Translations under genes and position numbers: made by a program
Part shown: piece by piece, positions 13,980-45,886 of the stretch
Numbering within the stretch: position 1 is the first letter of the stretch
How the letters are laid out: each line of letters begins with the position of its first letter
The notes under the pieces: model-generated
The model's input: the letters and a program-made list of their open reading frames with translations, nothing else
Told to the model about the DNA's origin: nothing
Databases searched by the model: none
From: Methylorubrum populi
Lineage (GTDB): Bacteria; Pseudomonadota; Alphaproteobacteria; Rhizobiales; Beijerinckiaceae
Direction: 5' to 3'
Length of the DNA: 64,000 nt
Assembly (NCBI GenBank): GCA_036946625.1
Contig: JAQIIU010000001.1
Span: forward strand, 1-64,000

Positions 13980-14056
13980 TGGCAGGAGTGGAGGGACTCG
14001 AACCCCCAACCCCCGGTTTTGGAGACCGGTGCTCTGACCAGTTGAGCTACACTCCT
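13980..14056 (-). tRNA. trnW: tRNA-Trp (CCA anticodon)
   Basis: A 77-nt cloverleaf on the minus strand. The acceptor stem AGGAGTG pairs with CACTCCT, the D arm contains GCTCAACTGGTCAGAGC, the anticodon loop is CTCCAAA (anticodon CCA), and the T arm contains GGTTCGAGTCC. The CCA end is encoded. It sits upstream of secE in the same direction. Confidence 0.97.
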
Positions 14057-35994: not shown

Positions 35995-38900
35995 CTACGC
36001 CGCCCCGTGCACCACCGGCACGGCGGGTGCGCCCTCCCACTCGGAATGCGGGGGGATCGACTCGCCCTTCATGACGATGGTGAGCGGGCGCAGCCGCGCG
36101 TAGTCGCCGACATGGCTGTCGTAGAGCACGGTGGAGAAGGCGCCGACCGAGACGCCCCGGCCGACCACGACGCGGCCGACCTTCATGATGCGGTCCTCGT
36201 AGAGATGGGTCTGGAGCGCCGCCGAGCGGTTGACCGCCGCGTAGTCGCCGATGGTGACGCAGTCGAACTCGGTGATGTCGGTCATCAGCAGGCAGGTGCC
36301 CCGGCCGACCTTCACGCCGAACAGCCGCAGCAGCCAGGGCAGGAACGGCGTGCCCATCAGGTGTTCGAGGAGCACCTTGCCGGCCAAGCCCCAATAGGCC
36401 ACCGCGATGGCCTCGGTGCGCATCGCCCACCACGACCACATCGGCCGCATGCCGGGGCGGTAGACGCCCATCAGCAGCCACTTGAGGGCGATCACGCTCG
36501 CGGTCTGGATCAGCGCGATGACGACGCTCGCGGCGACGAAGGCGAATCCCAAGCCGATCCAGTCCCCTTCGAGGATCTCGGGATAGAACACCCAGTCGAT
36601 CGCGCAGATGGCGAGCGAGATGTAGAGCATCGGCGAGAACGAGGTGGCGAAGGCCTCGAACAGGCCGCGTCTCAGCTTGGCCGCCTTGCTCGGCTCGAAG
36701 GTCTGGGCGGCCGAGCCGAGATCGACCCGCTGGCGCACCGGCAGGCGGATCGGCGGCGAGCCGAACCACGTCTCGCCCGGCCCCATGGCCTCGTTCGCCG
36801 GCGGCTTCGACTTGATGCCGATCAGCACGTCGTCGGGGATCTTCGCCCCCGGCGGCAGCACGCCGTCATTGCCGACGAAGACGCGCGCGCCGGTCTCGAC
36901 CGGATGGAGATGCATCCAGCCGCGGCGGATCTCCTCCTCGCCGACCACCACCTCGTCGGCGATGAAGTTGTCGGCGCCGACCGAAACGAGGTCGTGGCGC
37001 GAGCCGAGATTGGTCGAGATCTCGGCGCCCCGGCCCATCCGCGCGCCCATCAGCCGGTACCACGCCCGCATGTAGACGGTGGCGAACAGCGAGGAGAGCG
37101 TCTCCAGCGTCACCTCGGAGGCGAGCGCCACGAGCCACTTGCGCAGATAGAGGCCCGACCAGATCGAGACGGTGCCGTGCGTCGCCCGCGGCAGCACCAC
37201 CCAGCGGATGGCGGCGATGAGCAGCACCGTGCCCGCCGTCATCAGCATGGCGGTGGGCCAGGTCAGCAGCGGCAGGTAGAGGTGGTAATCGACGTCGGTC
37301 ATCTCCGAGAGATTGTCCGAGATCTGGTCGAAGATGTAGAAGGCCGGGAAGATCGGCAGCAGCCCGATCGCCGGCACCGCCGCGAGCAGGAAGGCATAAG
37401 CCCCGCCGAAGGCCGCCCGGCGGCCGGGCGAGGCGGTGGCCGGTTCGGGGAGCGCGGAAAAGTCGACCGTGCCGACCCGGCGGCCCGGCGAGCCGTCCCA
37501 GGCCTCGGCCGGACCGATTTCGGTGCCGGCGGGCACGGTGGTCAGATCGGCGATCTCGGCGTGATCGCCGATCACGGTGCCGGGGCCGATGACGCAGGAG
37601 GTGCCGATGGCCACATCCTCGCCGATGGCGACCCGGCCGATGACGAGTTCGTTGCCGACGACCTCGGCATTGGCGATGACGAGCCGGCCGCCGAGCGAGG
37701 CGCCGCGGCCGACGCTGAGGAGGTCGGGGGCGCCGACATCGAGGTCGGAGATCAGCACGTCGTCGCCGATCTTCGCGCCGAGCAGGCGCAGATAGGCGAC
37801 GACGGCGGGCGAGCCTTGCAGCCACTTGACGTGCACCAGCGGCGTCAGCCGCTGCGCCAGCCACCAGCGGTAATAATAGACGCCCCAGAGCGGGTAGCGG
37901 CCTGCCTTGGTCCGCCCGAGGATCAGCCACTTGGCGACGATCGCGATCGTCGCGGTCACCGCGTTGATGCCGATGTAGACGAGCAGCAGGACGCCGAGTT
38001 CGCCCCAGAATCCGAGCCCGCCGCCGGTCAGCAGCAGGTAGGTGACGAAGATGCCGAGCCACTGCGCCGTGGAGAGCGCGATCACGAAGGGCAGCGCCAC
38101 GGCCTGCGCCAGCCCGCACAGGGCGCGGCGCAGGAGCGGGGGCGGATCGAAGCTCAGGTTCCGCAAAGCCGCCTGCGCGCCGACGCCGCCGCTGCGCTCG
38201 ATCAGGCTTGCTGCCATCGCCCGCAGGGTCCGGCCGGCATAGACGTCCTGCAGGGTGATCCCGGCGAGCGCCGGGGTCTCGCGCACCGCGCCGACGAAGC
38301 GGGCGGCGAGCAGCGAGTGGCCGCCGAGCCCGGAGAAGAAGTCGGCCTCGAGCCCGATCGGCCCCCCGCCGAACACCTTTCTCGCCGCCGCCAGCAAAGC
38401 GGCCTCGGTCTCGTTGTCGGGGGCTTCCTGCTCGCCTTCCGGCCCGGCGACGGTCAGCGGGGCGATCCGCAACGCCTTGCGGTCGACCTTGCCCGATGTG
38501 AGCCGGGGCAGGGTCTCCACCGTCTCGAAATGGCCGGGCACCATGTAGGGCGGCATCTGCGCCGCCAGATTCCTTCGCACGTTCGCCCGGTCGAGGGTGG
38601 CGCCGCGCTCGGGCACGAGAAAGGCCACCAGCCGGTCCACCTCGTCGTCCCGGCGCAGCACCACCGCCGCCTGGTTGATCCCGTCCTGCGCCCGGATGCG
38701 GGCCTCGATCTCGCCGAGTTCCACGCGAAAACCGCGGATCTTGACCTGATCGTCGATGCGGCCGTGGAAGACGATGTCGCCTTCCGCCGTCATCGAGACG
38801 GCGTCGCCCGAGCGGTAGAGCACCGGATCGGTCCCGTCGGACGGATAGGGGTTGGCGACGAACTTTTCCGCCGTCAGTTCGGGCCGCTTGAGGTAGCCCG

Positions 38901-40053
38901 CCGCGACGCCGGGGCCGCCGATCAGCAATTCACCTTGTTCGCCGGGCCCGAGCAGGTTCAGCGCCTCGTCGGCGACGTAGACGGAATAGTTCGGGATCGG
39001 GCCGCCGATCGTCACGGGCCGGCCCGGCCGCATCTCGGCGGCGGTCGCCACCACGGTGGCCTCGGTCGGCCCGTAGGTGTTGAACAGGCGCCGCCGATCG
39101 GTCGCCCAGCGCGCCACCAGCGGCTCGGGCAAGGCTTCGCCCCCGAGCAGGACGAGGCGGACGGTGGGCAGGTCGCTCGCGATCATCGCGAGCAGGGTCG
39201 GCACCGTGTCGAGCACGGTGACGCGCGCCTGCGCGATGATCGCGGGCAGGGACTCGACGTCGCCCATCATGGCGGGGCTCGCCACGAACAGGCAGGCGCC
39301 GACGAGATAGGGAACCCAGATCTCCTCCATCGAGAGATCGAAGGCGACGGAAGCGCCCTGGAACACCACGTCGTCGGCGCGCAGGCCGTAGACGGCGTTG
39401 CCCGCGCGCAGGAAGTGGCAGATGTTGGCGTGGCTGATGACGATGCCCTTCGGCACGCCGGTCGAGCCCGAGGTGTAGATCAGGTAGGCCGGGTGCTCGG
39501 GGCCGAGGCCGGCGGCATCGAGATCGGGTATGGGCGCGCCCTGCCCCGCCGCCAGCAGCGCCGCACCCGTGACGGCGGGCGTGCCCTCCGGCGCCTGGGG
39601 CCGCAGGGCGTCGGAGACGAGCAGCGCCTTGGCCGCGGCGTCGCCCAGGCACACCGCGACCCGGTCGGCCGGCGCCTCGGCGTCGAAGGGGAGCCACGCG
39701 GCGCCGGATTTGGTGATGCCGATCTGCGCGACCAGCAGCTCCGTGCCGCGGGCCATCCAGAGGCCGACGACGTCGCCGGGGCCGATGCCGCGGGCGGACA
39801 GTCCCGCGGCGATCGCGTCGGAGCGGGCATCGACCTCGGCGTAGCTCAGGACCGGGCGGCGGCCCTCCGCATCGGCGCTCGCGGCATCGATCAGGCAGGG
39901 CGCGTCGGCATGCGCGGCCGCGCTCGCCCGGAACAGGGCGGCCAGGGTTTCCCGGCGGATCAGGTCGGGTCGCGCAGGGCCCCGCAGGACGGCGCGGCCT
40001 TCGTCCCGTCCGCCGTCCTGCCGGTTCCGGCTCTTCTCGGCGAGACCGCTCAT
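35995..40053 (-). CDS. Pls/PosA-type single-module nonribosomal peptide synthetase with membrane domain
   Basis: 1352 residues. Adenylation domain about 30-530: A3 YLIYTSGSTGVPKG (190-203), A4 VAFDLSMEEIW with the amino-group-binding Asp239, A5 NTYGPTEA (325-332), A7 YRSGD, A8 GRIDDQVKIRGFRVELGEIE (431-450), A10 Lys in TSGKVDRKAL. Carrier domain Ser580 in GLGGHS. Then about six membrane segments alternating with three soluble blocks that carry left-handed beta-helix hexapeptides (IGEDVAIGTSCVIGPGTVIG). This A-T-TM architecture is that of epsilon-poly-lysine synthetase (Pls) and relatives that make homopolymers of amino acids. The monomer cannot be read safely. There are no accessory export or protease genes nearby. 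Confidence 0.9.
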   Translation of the reverse strand: MSGLAEKSRNRQDGGRDEGRAVLRGPARPDLIRRETLAALFRASAAAHADAPCLIDAASADAEGRRPVLSYAEVDARSDAIAAGLSARGIGPGDVVGLWMARGTELLVAQIGITKSGAAWLPFDAEAPADRVAVCLGDAAAKALLVSDALRPQAPEGTPAVTGAALLAAGQGAPIPDLDAAGLGPEHPAYLIYTSGSTGVPKGIVISHANICHFLRAGNAVYGLRADDVVFQGASVAFDLSMEEIWVPYLVGACLFVASPAMMGDVESLPAIIAQARVTVLDTVPTLLAMIASDLPTVRLVLLGGEALPEPLVARWATDRRRLFNTYGPTEATVVATAAEMRPGRPVTIGGPIPNYSVYVADEALNLLGPGEQGELLIGGPGVAAGYLKRPELTAEKFVANPYPSDGTDPVLYRSGDAVSMTAEGDIVFHGRIDDQVKIRGFRVELGEIEARIRAQDGINQAAVVLRRDDEVDRLVAFLVPERGATLDRANVRRNLAAQMPPYMVPGHFETVETLPRLTSGKVDRKALRIAPLTVAGPEGEQEAPDNETEAALLAAARKVFGGGPIGLEADFFSGLGGHSLLAARFVGAVRETPALAGITLQDVYAGRTLRAMAASLIERSGGVGAQAALRNLSFDPPPLLRRALCGLAQAVALPFVIALSTAQWLGIFVTYLLLTGGGLGFWGELGVLLLVYIGINAVTATIAIVAKWLILGRTKAGRYPLWGVYYYRWWLAQRLTPLVHVKWLQGSPAVVAYLRLLGAKIGDDVLISDLDVGAPDLLSVGRGASLGGRLVIANAEVVGNELVIGRVAIGEDVAIGTSCVIGPGTVIGDHAEIADLTTVPAGTEIGPAEAWDGSPGRRVGTVDFSALPEPATASPGRRAAFGGAYAFLLAAVPAIGLLPIFPAFYIFDQISDNLSEMTDVDYHLYLPLLTWPTAMLMTAGTVLLIAAIRWVVLPRATHGTVSIWSGLYLRKWLVALASEVTLETLSSLFATVYMRAWYRLMGARMGRGAEISTNLGSRHDLVSVGADNFIADEVVVGEEEIRRGWMHLHPVETGARVFVGNDGVLPPGAKIPDDVLIGIKSKPPANEAMGPGETWFGSPPIRLPVRQRVDLGSAAQTFEPSKAAKLRRGLFEAFATSFSPMLYISLAICAIDWVFYPEILEGDWIGLGFAFVAASVVIALIQTASVIALKWLLMGVYRPGMRPMWSWWAMRTEAIAVAYWGLAGKVLLEHLMGTPFLPWLLRLFGVKVGRGTCLLMTDITEFDCVTIGDYAAVNRSAALQTHLYEDRIMKVGRVVVGRGVSVGAFSTVLYDSHVGDYARLRPLTIVMKGESIPPHSEWEGAPAVPVVHGAA

Positions 40054-40299: not shown

Positions 40300-41193
40300 C
40301 TACCCGGCGACCAATCGAAGCGTGCGGGCGGCGGGCGCGAGCCGCACCTGCCGGCCCCAGCCGAAGCCCAGGAAATCCTGCTCGATCCCGTCGGCGAACA
40401 CGACGCCGCCCTCGTTCATCCGCGAGGTGACGACCAGCGCGGCGTCGGCGAGCTTGCCGGCGCGCAGCCGCGTGGCGGTGGCGACGCTGGGAAACGGCTC
40501 GCGCACCCAGTAGCCGACCGCCCGCTCGTCGGGGGCGAGGCGAAAGGACAGACCGGTCGCCTCGGCGATCGAGCGGGCCCAGCCGGTGGCCCCGGTGCCG
40601 GAGGCGACGATGAGCCCGCTGGAGGAATGCTCCTCCGCCGCATCCGCCGCCTCGATCCGGTAGCGGGCGGATTGGTGGCCGCGGTGGCCGACGAAGATCT
40701 CGTTGAGGGCGAACAGGCGCTCGCCGCCGTCGAGCACCGCCTGGACCATGGTGCGGCGCTCGCATCCGACATCGCCCGCGAGGCTTGCCGGCAGCAGGCG
40801 GGGGAGCCGCTCGACGGGATGGCGCGCCAGCACCCCGTCGTAGAGGTCGGGCGCCGGGTTGACCCCGATCACCGGCTGCTCGCCCAGATACTTCGCGACG
40901 TTGGCGATCAGCCCGTCCTGACCGACGGCGACGATGACGTCGTCGTCCGCGAACAGGAAGCGGTCGAGGTCGGGTCGCCGCACCAGGGCCTGACGCCACG
41001 CGCCGGGCACGGCGGCCCGCGCCCGGGCCAGCACGGCGTGGAAGCGTTCGTGGCGCGCCTCGACCTCGGCGAGCCCCTGGCCGCGGCTCTCCAGGAAGAA
41101 GCGGGCCTGACCCCGCGTGGCGTGCCGGGCGATCAGCAGCTCGTAATCGGTCTCGCGGGTGACGAAGACCGCCCGCGGGGTGAGCGCGGCCAT
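40300..41193 (-). CDS. NAD kinase-like protein
   Basis: 297 residues. FADDDVIVAVGQDGLIANVA stands where NAD kinases have GGDGT, with the Asp kept but the Gly-Gly changed to Val-Gly-Gln. GTGATGWARSIAEA corresponds to the TPTGSTAYS loop. The overall NAD kinase/diacylglycerol kinase fold is therefore likely, but catalysis is uncertain. It starts 11 bp after the SPFH gene in the same operon, under a NrtR-like regulator, which points to NAD(P) metabolism. It is often labelled a sugar kinase in databases. Confidence 0.78.
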   Translation of the reverse strand: MAALTPRAVFVTRETDYELLIARHATRGQARFFLESRGQGLAEVEARHERFHAVLARARAAVPGAWRQALVRRPDLDRFLFADDDVIVAVGQDGLIANVAKYLGEQPVIGVNPAPDLYDGVLARHPVERLPRLLPASLAGDVGCERRTMVQAVLDGGERLFALNEIFVGHRGHQSARYRIEAADAAEEHSSSGLIVASGTGATGWARSIAEATGLSFRLAPDERAVGYWVREPFPSVATATRLRAGKLADAALVVTSRMNEGGVVFADGIEQDFLGFGWGRQVRLAPAARTLRLVAG

Positions 41194-41204
41194 GGGACCC
41201 TCCC

Positions 41205-42185
41205 TCAGCGCGCCGGAAGGCCGGTGGGCCGGCGGACCTCGCCGAGCAGAGTGGCGAGCAGGTCCGGCGTCACGTTGACGTGCTCGATCGTGTCGAGCTT
41301 GCCCGCCAGCGCCTGGGCGGCGAGGCCGAGCAGGGTGCCCGGCGCCACGTCGCGGTAGATCGCGATGCGCGCCTGCTCGGCTTCCGCCCGGGCGCCCTCG
41401 ACCGCGCGGATGCGCTCGGCCTCGGCGCCGGCCGCGATGCCTTCCGCCTCGGCCCGTCCCTGCGCCCGGTTGCGGGCGTTCTGCGCCTCTTCCGCGATCA
41501 GCAGGGCCTCGCGCCGGGCCAGTTCGGTCCTGGTGGCGAGTTCGTTCTCGGCGATCGCCCGCTCCTTCTCCACGGCCAGCGCCCGGCGGGCGAAGGTGGC
41601 CTCGTCCGCCTTCTGCTGCAGCGCCTCGTAGGTCGGCGTCTGGAGCGCGCGCTCCAGTTCGCTCGACGGGGCGAGGTCGGTGAGGCGCACCGACACCACG
41701 GCGACGCCGATCTCGGCGAGCGACGGCTCGGCGGCGAGCGCCGCCTGCAACGGCCCGCGCAAGGCTTCCGGTCCGGCATCGAGCAGGGCGCGCACCGGCG
41801 CCTGTCCCAGGAACTGGAGCACGGTCTGGTTGGCCAGCCCCGCGATGCGCGCCTCGATCCGCTCGACCGGCTCGCCCTGGAGCCGGCCGGTGCGCAGGTC
41901 GAGGGAGAAGTCGACCCGGGCGGCGAGGCGTTCGGGATCGGCGACGTGCCAGCCGACGCTGCCCTGCACCGCCACGGTCTGGAAATCGCCGCTGCGCCCG
42001 CGCACGAACAGCGTCATCTCGCGGTCGTCCATCGGCAGTTCGCTGATGCTCGCGGTCTCCGGCCGGAACCAGAACACGAGGCCGCGCCCGCTCTGGCGCG
42101 GGCGGCCGTTGCGGTAGCGGATGACGTGGTGGCTGGCCTCGCTGCGAAGCTGCGAGAGGACGCCGAACCGGCGGATCGTGGCCAT
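41205..42185 (-). CDS. SPFH/Band 7 domain protein
   Basis: 326 residues. SPFH domain in the first 190 residues (RGLVFWFRPETASISELPMD, GSVGWHVADPERLAARVDFS) and a long coiled coil (ARRALAVEKERAIAENELAT, EAEGIAAGAEAERIRAVEGA) as in flotillins. No obvious membrane segment is present, so membrane contact would be peripheral. SPFH proteins form large ring or cage scaffolds. It starts one base after the NrtR-like gene and precedes the NAD-kinase-like gene, so all three are co-translated. Confidence 0.9.
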   Translation of the reverse strand: MATIRRFGVLSQLRSEASHHVIRYRNGRPRQSGRGLVFWFRPETASISELPMDDREMTLFVRGRSGDFQTVAVQGSVGWHVADPERLAARVDFSLDLRTGRLQGEPVERIEARIAGLANQTVLQFLGQAPVRALLDAGPEALRGPLQAALAAEPSLAEIGVAVVSVRLTDLAPSSELERALQTPTYEALQQKADEATFARRALAVEKERAIAENELATRTELARREALLIAEEAQNARNRAQGRAEAEGIAAGAEAERIRAVEGARAEAEQARIAIYRDVAPGTLLGLAAQALAGKLDTIEHVNVTPDLLATLLGEVRRPTGLPAR

Positions 42186-42186
42186 G

Positions 42187-42948
42187 TCAGTCTCCTTGCG
42201 AAGAGGTTTGCGAGGGGGGTTGGCGGAAGCGGTAGAGTTCGGCGGGGCGGTAGGAGACCCCGGTCTCGAGCCGGCCGGTGGGCGCGAGCCAGCCGCGGTC
42301 GAGCATCCGGCGGCGGAAGGCCGGCTTGTTGAGGCGCGCACCGAGGATCGCCTCGTGCACGTCCTGGAGCTGGCGCAGGGTGAACAGCTCGGGCAGCAGG
42401 GCGAAGCCGACCTCCGACGTGTCGAGCTTGCCCCGCAGGCGCCGGATGGCCAGCGCGACGATCCCGGCGTGGTCGAAGGCGAGGGTGAGCGCCTCGCCCG
42501 TCCGCGACAGCACCGTCACCGGGCCGCCGGCCTCCCCCGCCCGAGGCGGTATGACCGTGCCCGGATGCAGGGCGGGGGCGCGCTCCAGCGCCTCGGTGAA
42601 GGCCGCCTCGGTCAGGAGCGCGAGATGGGCCACCGTGACGATGCGCATGCGCGGATCGCGCTCCACGGCGCCGAAGGTGTAGAGCTGCTCCAGATGCGCC
42701 CGCGCCCCACCCGCCTTCTCGCGCAGGACGCGCCCGGCGGCCGCGTCGAGCGCCTCGTCGATCCCGACGAAGCCGCCGGGCAGCGCGTGGCGCCCCGCAT
42801 GCGGGTGCCGGGCGCGCCGCAGCAGCAGGATGGCGGGGCGCCCGCCGGCGAGGCCCAGCAGCACCAGATCGACGGCCAGCGCCGGCCGCGCGTAATCGGC
42901 GGGATCGTAGCGGGCCAGGAACTCGGATTCCGACTCGGCTCGGCTCAT
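42187..42948 (-). CDS. NrtR-like regulator: Nudix fold plus winged helix
   Basis: 253 residues. The Nudix box GGFVGIDEALDAAAGRVLRE has lost the usual REUxEExGU acidic pair (here REKAGG), as in the ADP-ribose-sensing NrtR regulators that no longer hydrolyse substrate. The C-terminal 85 residues (LLPELFTLRQLQDVHEAILG, ARLNKPAFRRRMLDRGWLAP, TGRLETG) form the NrtR winged helix. NrtR represses NAD synthesis and salvage genes. Here the gene heads an operon with SPFH and NAD-kinase-like genes, so it likely controls its own operon from the AT-rich region upstream. Confidence 0.88.
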   Translation of the reverse strand: MSRAESESEFLARYDPADYARPALAVDLVLLGLAGGRPAILLLRRARHPHAGRHALPGGFVGIDEALDAAAGRVLREKAGGARAHLEQLYTFGAVERDPRMRIVTVAHLALLTEAAFTEALERAPALHPGTVIPPRAGEAGGPVTVLSRTGEALTLAFDHAGIVALAIRRLRGKLDTSEVGFALLPELFTLRQLQDVHEAILGARLNKPAFRRRMLDRGWLAPTGRLETGVSYRPAELYRFRQPPSQTSSQGD

Positions 42949-42964: not shown

Positions 42965-43015
42965 TCTTATATCCAATGTGCGATTTAGTTATTTTTGTTT
43001 TGAATATATGTCAAG
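42965..43015 (-). promoter_or_regulatory. AT-rich promoter/operator region of the NrtR-SPFH operon
   Basis: About 50 bp with far lower GC than its surroundings, including TTATATCC, TTTAGTTATTTTTG and AATATATG, directly upstream of the NrtR-like gene. An operator is expected here because NrtR regulators usually bind AT-rich palindromes, but no clean palindrome was found by eye. Confidence 0.5.
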
Positions 43016-43241: not shown

Positions 43242-43889
43242 ATGACGACCACCCAGACGACCACCACCCAATCCACGATGCGCACCCGCGTCCTGCGCCT
43301 GACCGCCGCCGCCGGCCTGCTGGCCCTGACGACGGGCGTCGCCGCGGCCCAGAACCCCGACCTGACCAAGAACCCGGAGAACACCGGCCGCGCGCCGACC
43401 GCGACGGAGGCCACCAAATCCAACGGCAACCTGAAAGAGTGGCAGGTGGCCAAATCGGCCAAGACCGGCCTCGCCCAGGCGATCGCCACCGCCGAGGGCG
43501 CGGGCGAGGAGAAGGGCGGCCGGGCGATCGACGCCGATTTCGAGAAGGCCGACGGCAAGAACCCGGCGCATTACGCGATCAAGGTGGTCTACCCGAGCGG
43601 CAAGCTCGTCGAGCACGGCATCGACGCCGACACCGGCGCCCTCTACAAGTCCGAGAACCAGCCGATCGAGCGCTACTTCACCCGCCTGAAGGTCAGCGAC
43701 TTCCAGAACGCCAAGGTCTCGCTGAAGGACGCGATCGCGCTCGCCGAGAAGAAGGCTCCCGGCGGCAAGGCCTACGAGGCCGAGGTCGAGCGCGAGGGCA
43801 AGGCGGTCGAGTACGAGATCAAGGTGGCGCTCACCGACCGCGAGCAGGAGATCAAGGTCGGCCCCGACGGCACCGTGAAGAACGACTGA
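43242..43889 (+). CDS. Exported protein with two PepSY domains
   Basis: 215 residues. The signal peptide (MRTRVLRLTAAAGLLALTTG, then VAAAQNP) is followed by two PepSY-like repeats: KTGLAQAIATAEG...PAHYAIKVVYPSGKLVEHGI-type, and KVSLKDAIALAEKKAPGGKA...EYEIKVALTDREQEIKVGPD. PepSY modules in the periplasm often act as inhibitors or sensors of peptidases. ATG 43242 has GGGAGCC upstream. It stands alone with a 14-bp hairpin after the stop. Confidence 0.88.
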   Translation: MTTTQTTTTQSTMRTRVLRLTAAAGLLALTTGVAAAQNPDLTKNPENTGRAPTATEATKSNGNLKEWQVAKSAKTGLAQAIATAEGAGEEKGGRAIDADFEKADGKNPAHYAIKVVYPSGKLVEHGIDADTGALYKSENQPIERYFTRLKVSDFQNAKVSLKDAIALAEKKAPGGKAYEAEVEREGKAVEYEIKVALTDREQEIKVGPDGTVKND

Positions 43890-44893: not shown

Positions 44894-45886
44894 ATGGCGC
44901 ACAAGAACGGCAAGGACGGCGACGGTTCCCGGCGTGACAAAGCGCGGGAAACAAAGCCGCAGGACGGCGTTCCCGGCGGCGATCCCCCGCCCTCCTCCGC
45001 CGGCCAGGCGCGTGCGGCGGAGGCGGGCGCCGGCACCGCGCCGAGCCTGTCGCCGCATCTCCACCCCGTCCTGCCGCCTGCGGCCCGGGGCATCGTCACG
45101 GTCGAGCCCGGCCGGGGCTTCACCCTCGCCTCGGTCGATCCGGACGCCGCCGGCGGCCTCGACAAGGCGCAGGCCAAGGGCGCGCTCACCGAGGAGCGGG
45201 CGCGCATCAGGGCGCTGCAGGAAAGGCTCTACGCCGAGCGCCGCCGCTCCCTGCTGGTGGTGTTCCAGGCCATCGACACCGGCGGCAAGGACGGCACCAT
45301 CCGCAACGTCCTGGAGGGGGTGAACCCGCAGGGCTGCCGGGTCTGGTCGTTCAAGGTGCCGAGCGCCGAGGAGCTCGATCAGGACTTTCTCTGGCGCTAT
45401 CACGCCCGCGTCCCCGGCCGCGGCCTGATCGGCGTGTTCAACCGCAGCCACTACGAGGACGTGCTGGTGGTGCGGGTGAAGGGGCTGGTGCCGGAGGAGA
45501 CGTGGCGCGAGCGCTACGGGCTCATCAACGATTTCGAGCGGCTGCTGACGCTCTCAGGGGTCGTGATCCTGAAGTTCTTCCTGCACATCTCCAAGGACGA
45601 GCAGAAGGAGCGCCTGGAGGCGCGCCTCGCCGACCCGAAGAAGCACTGGAAGTTCGACCCCGCCGACCTCGTGGAGCGGAAAAGCTGGGATGCCTACCAG
45701 ACCGCCTTCGACGACGCGCTGACCCGCTGCTCGACCCCTTACGCCCCCTGGCACGTGGTGCCGGCCGACCGCAAATGGGCCCGCAACCTGATGGTCGCGA
45801 AAACCATCGCCGACACGCTGGAGGCGATGGACCCGCACTTCCCGGAGCCGCGCGAGGGGCTGGAAGGCCTCACGGTGCCGGATTGA
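44894..45886 (+). CDS. ppk2: Polyphosphate kinase 2 family protein
   Basis: 330 residues. A disordered Gly/Pro-rich N-terminus of about 60 residues precedes the PPK2 core: VVFQAIDTGGKDGTIRNVL (Walker A GGKDG), FLWRYHARVPGRGLIGVFNR, SHYEDVLVVRV, FERLLTLSGVVILKFFLHIS, the lid ERLEARLADPKKHWKFDPAD and the late APWHVVPADRKWARNLMV. PPK2 enzymes use polyphosphate to phosphorylate nucleoside mono- or diphosphates. Class cannot be decided by eye. ATG 44894 is preferred. Confidence 0.94.
   Translation: MAHKNGKDGDGSRRDKARETKPQDGVPGGDPPPSSAGQARAAEAGAGTAPSLSPHLHPVLPPAARGIVTVEPGRGFTLASVDPDAAGGLDKAQAKGALTEERARIRALQERLYAERRRSLLVVFQAIDTGGKDGTIRNVLEGVNPQGCRVWSFKVPSAEELDQDFLWRYHARVPGRGLIGVFNRSHYEDVLVVRVKGLVPEETWRERYGLINDFERLLTLSGVVILKFFLHISKDEQKERLEARLADPKKHWKFDPADLVERKSWDAYQTAFDDALTRCSTPYAPWHVVPADRKWARNLMVAKTIADTLEAMDPHFPEPREGLEGLTVPD

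What the first reader, a model, noticed from the sequence alone, without database searches (positions are those of the whole stretch)
40300..42948. NrtR-like, SPFH and NAD-kinase-like genes in one coupled operon
The Nudix box of the first protein has lost its catalytic acids and carries an NrtR winged helix; the third protein looks like an NAD kinase with an altered GGDG motif; between them is a flotillin-like scaffold. Spacers are 1 and 11 bp. An ADP-ribose-sensing regulator controlling a scaffold plus NAD(P)-linked enzyme is not a standard NAD pathway and could be a stress or defence system.
Basis: partly seen in the sequence, partly recalled or inferred. Interest (0 to 1): 0.65.

Follow-up and report, generated by a model that had tools for sequence, protein, structure and literature searches.

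The report
NrtR-controlled SPFH and NADK2-like pair
[quoted passage not shown] the last two genes travel together across many bacteria and look like an uncharacterised NAD-linked module.

Summary
In detail: three coupled minus-strand genes (40300-42948) encode an NrtR-type Nudix/winged-helix protein, an SPFH protein and a protein with the NAD-kinase fold. The trio is a conserved module: in 297 genomes of the order the SPFH and kinase-like families occupy the same 21 genomes; in 80 named loci SPFH is adjacent in 79 and NrtR present in 75. The kinase-like protein is closest to human mitochondrial NADK2 in sequence and fold, but GGDG is replaced by GQDG in 100 of 101 sequences. The SPFH protein lacks an N-terminal membrane anchor. 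A conserved, partly palindromic operator overlaps the promoter; its pattern occurs once in the genome. In five sphingomonad loci it lies between a pncA-like gene and the operon, which runs into pncB; in one Chloroflexota locus nadE-C-A-B and kptA flank the pair. Most likely an NrtR autorepressor, relieved by an NAD breakdown product, controls an obligate SPFH/NAD(H)-kinase-like effector. Ligand, activity and physical pairing are untested; defence is not supported. I found no description of the combination, though the main NrtR survey was not held.

The parts
42187..42948 (-). NrtR-type regulator: degenerate Nudix domain plus NrtR winged helix (P0001, 253 aa)
41205..42185 (-). SPFH (Band 7) protein without N-terminal hydrophobic segment, long C-terminal helix (P0002, 326 aa)
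40300..41193 (-). NADK-superfamily protein, NADK2-like, GQDG in place of GGDG (P0003, 297 aa)
42966..43014 (-). promoter/operator region: TTGACATATAT - N12 - TAACTAA ... GGATATAAG; TTGACA and TAACTA are 17 bp apart, inside a decayed extended palindrome; binding not tested
   Evidence: not found by the strict consensus promoter scan

Best explanation
The operon is a self-contained NAD-status response unit. The NrtR-type protein is an autorepressor that sits on an extended palindrome overlapping the promoter and is released when a product of NAD breakdown, most likely ADP-ribose, accumulates. It then derepresses an obligate two-protein effector: a soluble SPFH protein that should assemble into rings or a cage, and a NADK2-like enzyme that works with it. 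The enzyme most likely still phosphorylates NAD or NADH, raising NADP(H) when NAD turnover is high; in some sphingomonads the same switch would also turn on salvage (pncA-like gene, pncB). Shown by computation: the gene unit, the shared occurrence of SPFH and kinase-like genes, the NADK2-like fold, retained Asp/Asn/Glu/Thr positions, the conserved promoter sequence, NAD-gene linkage in six loci. Inferred: ligand, operator binding, SPFH-kinase contact, oligomer form, reaction.
For: SPFH family (21 of 297 genomes) and full-length kinase-like family (21 of 297) occupy the same 21 genomes. SPFH lies within 324 bp of the kinase-like gene on the same strand in 79 of 80 named loci; NrtR is present in 75 of 80. 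SPFH and kinase-like distances correlate at r 0.968 over 65 of 80 loci. Best profile hit is human NADK2, E 7.2e-16; Z 26.0 to NADK2 versus 22.1 to the best other NAD kinase. G91, D93, G94 and N164 are invariant in 45 sequences, E165 and T203 nearly so. Operator symmetry: 591 of 1155 pairs versus 305.6 +/- 15.2 in 500 shuffles. The pattern matches once in the genome, at this promoter; reversed control 0. A pncA-like gene, operator, trio and pncB in five loci at three places of the tree; nadE, nadC, nadA, a nadB-like gene and kptA beside the pair in L108. ADP-ribose releases NrtR from DNA in M. smegmatis (PMC6800001, passages).
Against: GGDG is replaced in all 101 full-length sequences checked (GQDG in 100, GPDG in L109), so catalysis may be lost or changed. 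The canonical Asp and Tyr of region II are Ser and Trp (NADK2 shares this in the alignments). 74 of 80 named loci show none of the nine query genes, most of them NAD-linked, and the window has none. The pair exists without a detected NrtR in L141, L142, L151 (Actinomycetota), L108 and L059, so that kind of sensing is not universal. The window's own operator symmetry is modest (11 of 21 pairs). The genome has an ordinary NADK as well. In C. glutamicum the NrtR homologue responds to NAD rather than being released by ADP-ribose (PMC6800001, passage), so the effector may differ.
Confidence: 0.5

Rival explanations
1. P0003 is a pseudokinase: the NADK fold was kept to bind NAD(H) or NADP(H) as a sensor that gates the SPFH assembly, with no phosphoryl transfer.
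For: GGDG is lost in 101 of 101 sequences; score below the NAD_kinase cut-off; an ordinary NADK elsewhere in the genome; constant pairing with an SPFH protein.
Against: The loop Asp (D93) and the Asn of the NE motif (N164) are invariant and E165 is 92% conserved; 65 of 297 positions are invariant in 45 sequences, many of them polar and near the presumed site, which is more typical of an enzyme.
Confidence: 0.2
2. P0003 is an active kinase with another donor or acceptor, for example polyphosphate as donor, or a damaged or partial dinucleotide as acceptor, which would explain the changed loop.
For: A change in the same loop (GGDG to GGDD) goes with PPi use in phosphofructokinases (PMC12203962, one passage). 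Human NADK2 uses polyphosphate, and NADH in a preliminary result (PMC8553519, passages). N98, K101, Y102, H173, E187, E271 and D273 are invariant here and not among the columns conserved in 18 canonical NADKs. A PPK2 gene lies about 2 kb away in the window.
Against: PPK2 is near the module in only 2 of the 80 named loci, both close relatives. ATP/polyphosphate NADKs did not phosphorylate ADP-ribose (PMC8553519, passage). There is no substrate evidence of any kind.
Confidence: 0.22
3. The module is an anti-phage or conflict system that acts on cellular NAD.
For: Patchy distribution (21 of 297 genomes of the order, 3 of 6 of the genus), plasmid copies (65 records with a match, 57 covering at least 80% of P0003), a tree with Hyphomicrobiales and sphingomonad members mixed.
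Against: No PADLOC model at E up to 1 for the three proteins; none in phage records or viral contigs; NAD biosynthesis and salvage genes as neighbours in six loci.
Confidence: 0.05
4. A 'sugar kinase', as several plasmid records name relatives of P0003.
For: Names on Rhizobium and Methylomonas records.
Against: Fold and sequence point to NAD kinases; no sugar gene was recognised among the recurring ORF clusters shown.
Confidence: 0.03

Closest known systems
Human mitochondrial NAD kinase NADK2 (MNADK, C5orf33; PDB 7r4j-7r4m, 7n29)
   Same: Best hit by profile (E 7.2e-16) and fold (Z 26.0, 277 residues, rmsd 2.8); shares the Ser-Gly, Gly-for-Pro and Trp-for-Tyr pattern in region II (printed alignments).
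   Different: GQDG instead of GGDGT; 24-25% identity over the structural alignment; bacterial operon with SPFH and NrtR partners.
NrtR family of Nudix-related NAD repressors (3gz5, MsNrtR)
   Same: Two-domain plan, degenerate Nudix box, palindromic sequence at its own promoter.
   Different: Sits with an SPFH/kinase-like pair instead of nadABC; the palindrome is about 46 bp in its best form (L040, L053) against 23 bp in mycobacteria (PMC6800001, passage); 153.6 bits against a 400-bit cut-off for the NCBIfam equivalog.
NadQ of alphaproteobacteria (PDB 7q91)
   Same: Homologous winged helix.
   Different: Different N-terminal domain (PMC5343134, passage); the genome has its own NadQ-like protein elsewhere (E 2.1e-90).
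Prokaryotic SPFH proteins (12 subfamilies; SPFH8 and SPFH9 said to be soluble, PMC2636767)
   Same: Band_7 domain, SPFH fold plus long C-terminal helix; probably soluble, like SPFH8/9.
   Different: Kinase-like partner gene; I could not compare it with SPFH8/9 sequences. A term search of that paper's main text found no word beginning 'nudix', 'kinase' or 'nad'.

Membership tests
NrtR regulators | Nudix-like domain followed by NrtR winged helix | tested here: met
   NUDIX 36 bits over 21.1, NrtR_WHD 80 over 27
NrtR regulators | NCBIfam NF050029 equivalog cut-off | tested here: not met
   153.6 bits, cut-off 400; so it is filed as NrtR-type, not as that equivalog
NrtR regulators | Palindromic operator in the promoter of the regulated operon | tested here: met
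   conserved across relatives; in the window 11 of 21 pairs; protein binding not tested
NrtR regulators | Controls NAD biosynthesis or salvage genes | tested here: inconclusive
   only its own promoter in the window's genome with one fixed-spacing pattern; operator beside a pncA-like gene, pncB in the same run of genes, in 5 sphingomonad loci
NrtR regulators | Released from DNA by ADP-ribose | not testable with these tools
   no binding data
NAD kinase (PF01513, canonical NADK) | Pfam gathering score | tested here: not met
   P0003 17.5 bits vs 25.5; 20 of 45 members match at E up to 0.01
NAD kinase (PF01513, canonical NADK) | GGDG motif | tested here: not met
   GQDG in 100 of 101 sequences, GPDG in L109
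NAD kinase (PF01513, canonical NADK) | Loop Asp and NE/D motif | tested here: met
   D93 and N164 invariant, E165 92%
NAD kinase (PF01513, canonical NADK) | Overall fold | tested here: met
   pLDDT 91.3; the 50 rows listed are NAD kinase entries
NAD kinase (PF01513, canonical NADK) | Phosphorylates NAD or NADH | not testable with these tools
   needs an enzyme assay
NADK2 (mitochondrial type) | Closer to NADK2 than to canonical NADKs | tested here: met
   E 7.2e-16 vs 6.6e-7 for the best other; Z 26.0 vs 22.1; no tree with eukaryotic sequences was possible
NADK2 (mitochondrial type) | GGDGT motif | tested here: not met
   therefore filed as NADK2-like, not as NADK2
SPFH / Band 7 | Band_7 domain over cut-off | tested here: met
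   52.3 vs 23.6
SPFH / Band 7 | N-terminal hydrophobic membrane segment of classic members | tested here: not met
   best 19-residue mean hydropathy in the first 60 residues 0.2 (window), at most 1.05 in 42 members; two soluble subfamilies are described (PMC2636767, section 11), so this does not exclude SPFH
SPFH / Band 7 | NfeD partner gene of several subfamilies | not tested
   no NfeD search was run; no such cluster was noticed
   stomatin, HflK/C, erlin and prohibitin rank above flotillin
Known anti-phage defence systems | Match to a PADLOC-DB model | tested here: not met
   none at E up to 1 for the three proteins; neighbours not scanned

The most novel reading that the evidence does not exclude
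A soluble SPFH shell encloses or arrays a retooled NADK2-like enzyme, forming an NAD-breakdown-induced compartment in bacteria: a functional parallel to SPFH assemblies in mitochondria and to the SPFH-containing vault shell, with a bacterial relative of the mitochondrial NAD kinase that has a changed phosphoryl-donor loop.
Probability: 0.2. Interest if true: 0.85.

Novelty: new variant of a known kind. Interest (0 to 1): 0.62.

Why it matters
Small bacterial SPFH families mostly lack a known function (PMC2636767 says subfamilies 6-12 contain no documented member proteins). An SPFH family whose distribution matches that of one enzyme-like partner offers a directly testable client. The partner is a bacterial relative of NADK2 with a nearly invariant change in the phosphate loop, so it bears on how NAD kinases choose donor and acceptor. 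It also suggests a second, locally acting NAD-linked NrtR circuit in a genome that has a NadQ-like protein. Current names in records ('sugar kinase', 'hypothetical protein', 'NUDIX domain-containing protein') hide this.

Tried and rejected
Defence or phage origin: PADLOC, PHROGs (only Nudix matches, for P0001), phage records and viral contigs gave no support. Sugar kinase: rejected on fold. A further conserved neighbour: clustering of called ORFs in the 80 loci found no real family beyond the trio in more than 7 loci (a crude gene caller that also produced an antisense artefact cluster and missed trio members, so counts come). Polyphosphate link through the nearby PPK2 gene: near the module in 2 of 80 named loci. 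Strict sigma-70 scan: no hit, since TAACTA lacks the required T at position 6. An absent family in the fold lists proves nothing.

Limits of the counts; the full-length cut (E below 1e-50; the next best match is 7e-7) was set after seeing the list, and A2 was listed at E up to 1e-20. One search kept only ORFs with a resolved start and stop (101, 96 and 68 of 111 loci for P0003, P0002, P0001). One search used 55 of 66 upstream regions (11 dropped, no usable anchor within 2 mismatches). The distance correlation used 65 of 80 loci; the tree used 80. One search's 18 canonical NADKs were chosen to contain a GGDG-type motif and NE, so those columns are fixed by construction. One search's nine queries came from loci where I had already seen these genes by eye, so other or distant NAD genes may be missed; the 31 unnamed loci in that search have only about 1.5 kb of flank, so I count over the 80 named ones. 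Pfam checked the PncA-like and PncB proteins in one locus each; the other four of each rest on tblastn. A1 holds the window and 44 of the 80 loci, thinned by me for redundancy. The 125 rows include repeats (the window three times, several unnamed-genome loci twice).
Full report
What is there. The minus strand from 42948 to 40300 carries three ORFs spaced 1 and 11 bp apart. P0001 is a Nudix domain followed by the NrtR winged helix. P0002 is an SPFH/Band 7 protein. P0003 has the NAD-kinase fold but scores under Pfam's NAD_kinase cut-off. The window's genome also has an ordinary NADK and a NadQ-like protein.

The unit is real and conserved. In 80 named loci found with P0003 alone, an SPFH gene lies within 324 bp on the same strand in 79; the exception, L085, has 17 bases upstream of the gene. 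An NrtR-type gene is present in 75 of 80; of the five without, L071, L085 and L106 are cut off by contig ends, L059 and L108 are not. In 73 of the 75 it is on the same strand, in L090 and L092 it is divergent. In 297 genomes of the order, the SPFH family is in 21 and the full-length kinase-like family in the same 21; 3 of the 6 genomes of the genus have it. In 398 genomes of the phylum, 12 have full-length members at 273 bits or more and the next best match is 43.6 bits, over the canonical NADK core only. So this is a discrete family. It also occurs in Actinomycetota, Spirochaetota and beta- and gammaproteobacteria. SPFH and kinase-like distances correlate at 0.968; each correlates less with the regulator (0.889 and 0.886). 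The constant core is the SPFH/kinase-like pair. The regulator is the variable part: not detected within 7-9 kb upstream in the three Streptomyces and Kitasatospora loci (L141, L142, L151), and 5 kb away in Treponema.

The kinase-like protein. The family profile finds human NADK2 at E 7.2e-16, other NADKs at 6.6e-7 or weaker. The model (pLDDT 91.3, pTM 0.88) matches NADK2 at Z 24.8-26.0 and other NADKs at 22.1 or less. D93 and N164 are invariant, E165 and T203 nearly so; by motif counting these correspond to residues found vital in the M. tuberculosis enzyme, whose fifth such residue, a Tyr, is Trp here (PMC8553519, passages). Ser192, Gly199 and Trp205 replace the canonical Asp, Pro and Tyr, as in the NADK2 stretches printed. 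The second glycine of GGDG is Gln in 100 of 101 sequences; L109 has Pro. A change in the same loop goes with a different phosphoryl donor in phosphofructokinases (PMC12203962, one passage). Whether P0003 is an NAD(H) kinase, a kinase with another donor or acceptor, or a sensor is open.

The SPFH protein. The model (mean pLDDT 83.4, pTM 0.54) has the SPFH beta-domain and a helix from residue 186 to 277, less certain towards the C-terminus; top-ranked folds are stomatin, HflK/C, erlin and prohibitin, with flotillin and vault lower. There is no N-terminal hydrophobic stretch in the window's protein or in the 42 aligned members. Two soluble prokaryotic SPFH subfamilies are described (SPFH8, SPFH9; PMC2636767, section 11 read), but I had no sequences to test membership.

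The control region. Upstream of the regulator, TTGACATATAT-N12-TAACTAA or close variants recur in Methylorubrum, Methylobacterium and sphingomonads, with another form in Mesorhizobium. In L040 and L053 it is part of a palindrome of about 46 bp; over 55 of 66 upstream regions the symmetric centre gives 591 of 1155 complementary pairs against 305.6 +/- 15.2 in 500 shuffles, next best centre 427 of 1100. The window's copy is decayed (11 of 21). With up to 3 mismatches the fixed-spacing pattern matches once in the genome, at this promoter, reversed control 0. A local autoregulated unit is the simplest reading; sites of other spacing would be missed.

Link to NAD. In L054, L055, L074, L075 and L076 an isochorismatase-family, PncA-like gene is divergent from the regulator with the TTGACATAT sequence between them, and a nicotinate phosphoribosyltransferase gene (pncB) starts 8-67 bp after the kinase-like gene. 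These loci fall at three places in the tree. In L108 (Chloroflexota) nadE, nadC, nadA and a nadB-like gene precede the pair and an RNA 2'-phosphotransferase (kptA) follows. Against this, 74 of the 80 named loci show none of the query genes nearby, and neither does the window.

Mechanism. NrtR is released from DNA by ADP-ribose in M. smegmatis, though the C. glutamicum homologue responds to NAD (PMC6800001, passages). Seven rows carry a regulator with an intact Nudix box, which fits an ancestral nucleotide-diphosphate ligand. I infer that an NAD breakdown product relieves repression and that the SPFH/kinase-like pair then acts on the NAD(P)(H) pool. Ligand, reaction and physical pairing are inferred, not shown.

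Known or new. Searches of the open library for the combination (listings seen) gave no paper that names it in title or abstract start; the 2009 SPFH survey holds no word beginning 'nudix', 'kinase' or 'nad'. The 2008 NrtR survey was not held, so prior mention there cannot be excluded. The parts are known kinds; the pair and the GQDG family are, as far as I could check, undescribed.

Noticed in passing
L148 (Proteus mirabilis), L150 (Acinetobacter lwoffii), L152 (pAST2): Gammaproteobacterial copies of the module lie beside tet(J) or tetR(H)-tet(H); matches to about 40% of the kinase-like protein occur on Psychrobacter and Pasteurella plasmids. SPFH scores are low in L150 and L152. Described only.
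   Followed up: no
window 44903-45883 (+): Polyphosphate kinase 2 (PPK2, 254.8 bits) about 2 kb from the operon; human NADK2 can use polyphosphate, but PPK2 is near the module only in L032 and L038.
   Followed up: partly
window 35995-40053 (-): Large AMP-binding/hexapeptide protein (1352 aa) starting about 250 bp after the kinase-like gene on the same strand; a related ORF follows the module in 7 Methylorubrum-type loci.
   Followed up: partly
window 43242-43886 (+): PepSY-domain protein, divergent from the operon; a similar ORF lies nearby in 5 loci.
   Followed up: no
L143: 2978-3832: Treponema plasmid NrtR-type protein with an intact Nudix box 5 kb from the SPFH/kinase-like pair, near genes annotated as HEPN nuclease and DUF3990.
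   Followed up: no
L108: 6955-7626 and L144: 8939-9550: Small P-loop kinase-like genes next to the kinase-like gene in two distant loci (AAA_33 and AAA_18 just below their Pfam cut-offs, CPT above).
   Followed up: no
upstream of nrtR in Mesorhizobium loci (L049, L050, L057, L111): A compact inverted repeat of the form ACATATAT-N9-ATATATGT, with arms about 18 bp closer than in the extended form.
   Followed up: partly
L109: 6001-6891: The one kinase-like member with GPDG instead of GQDG.
   Followed up: no
window 13980-14056 (-): tRNA-Trp.
   Followed up: no
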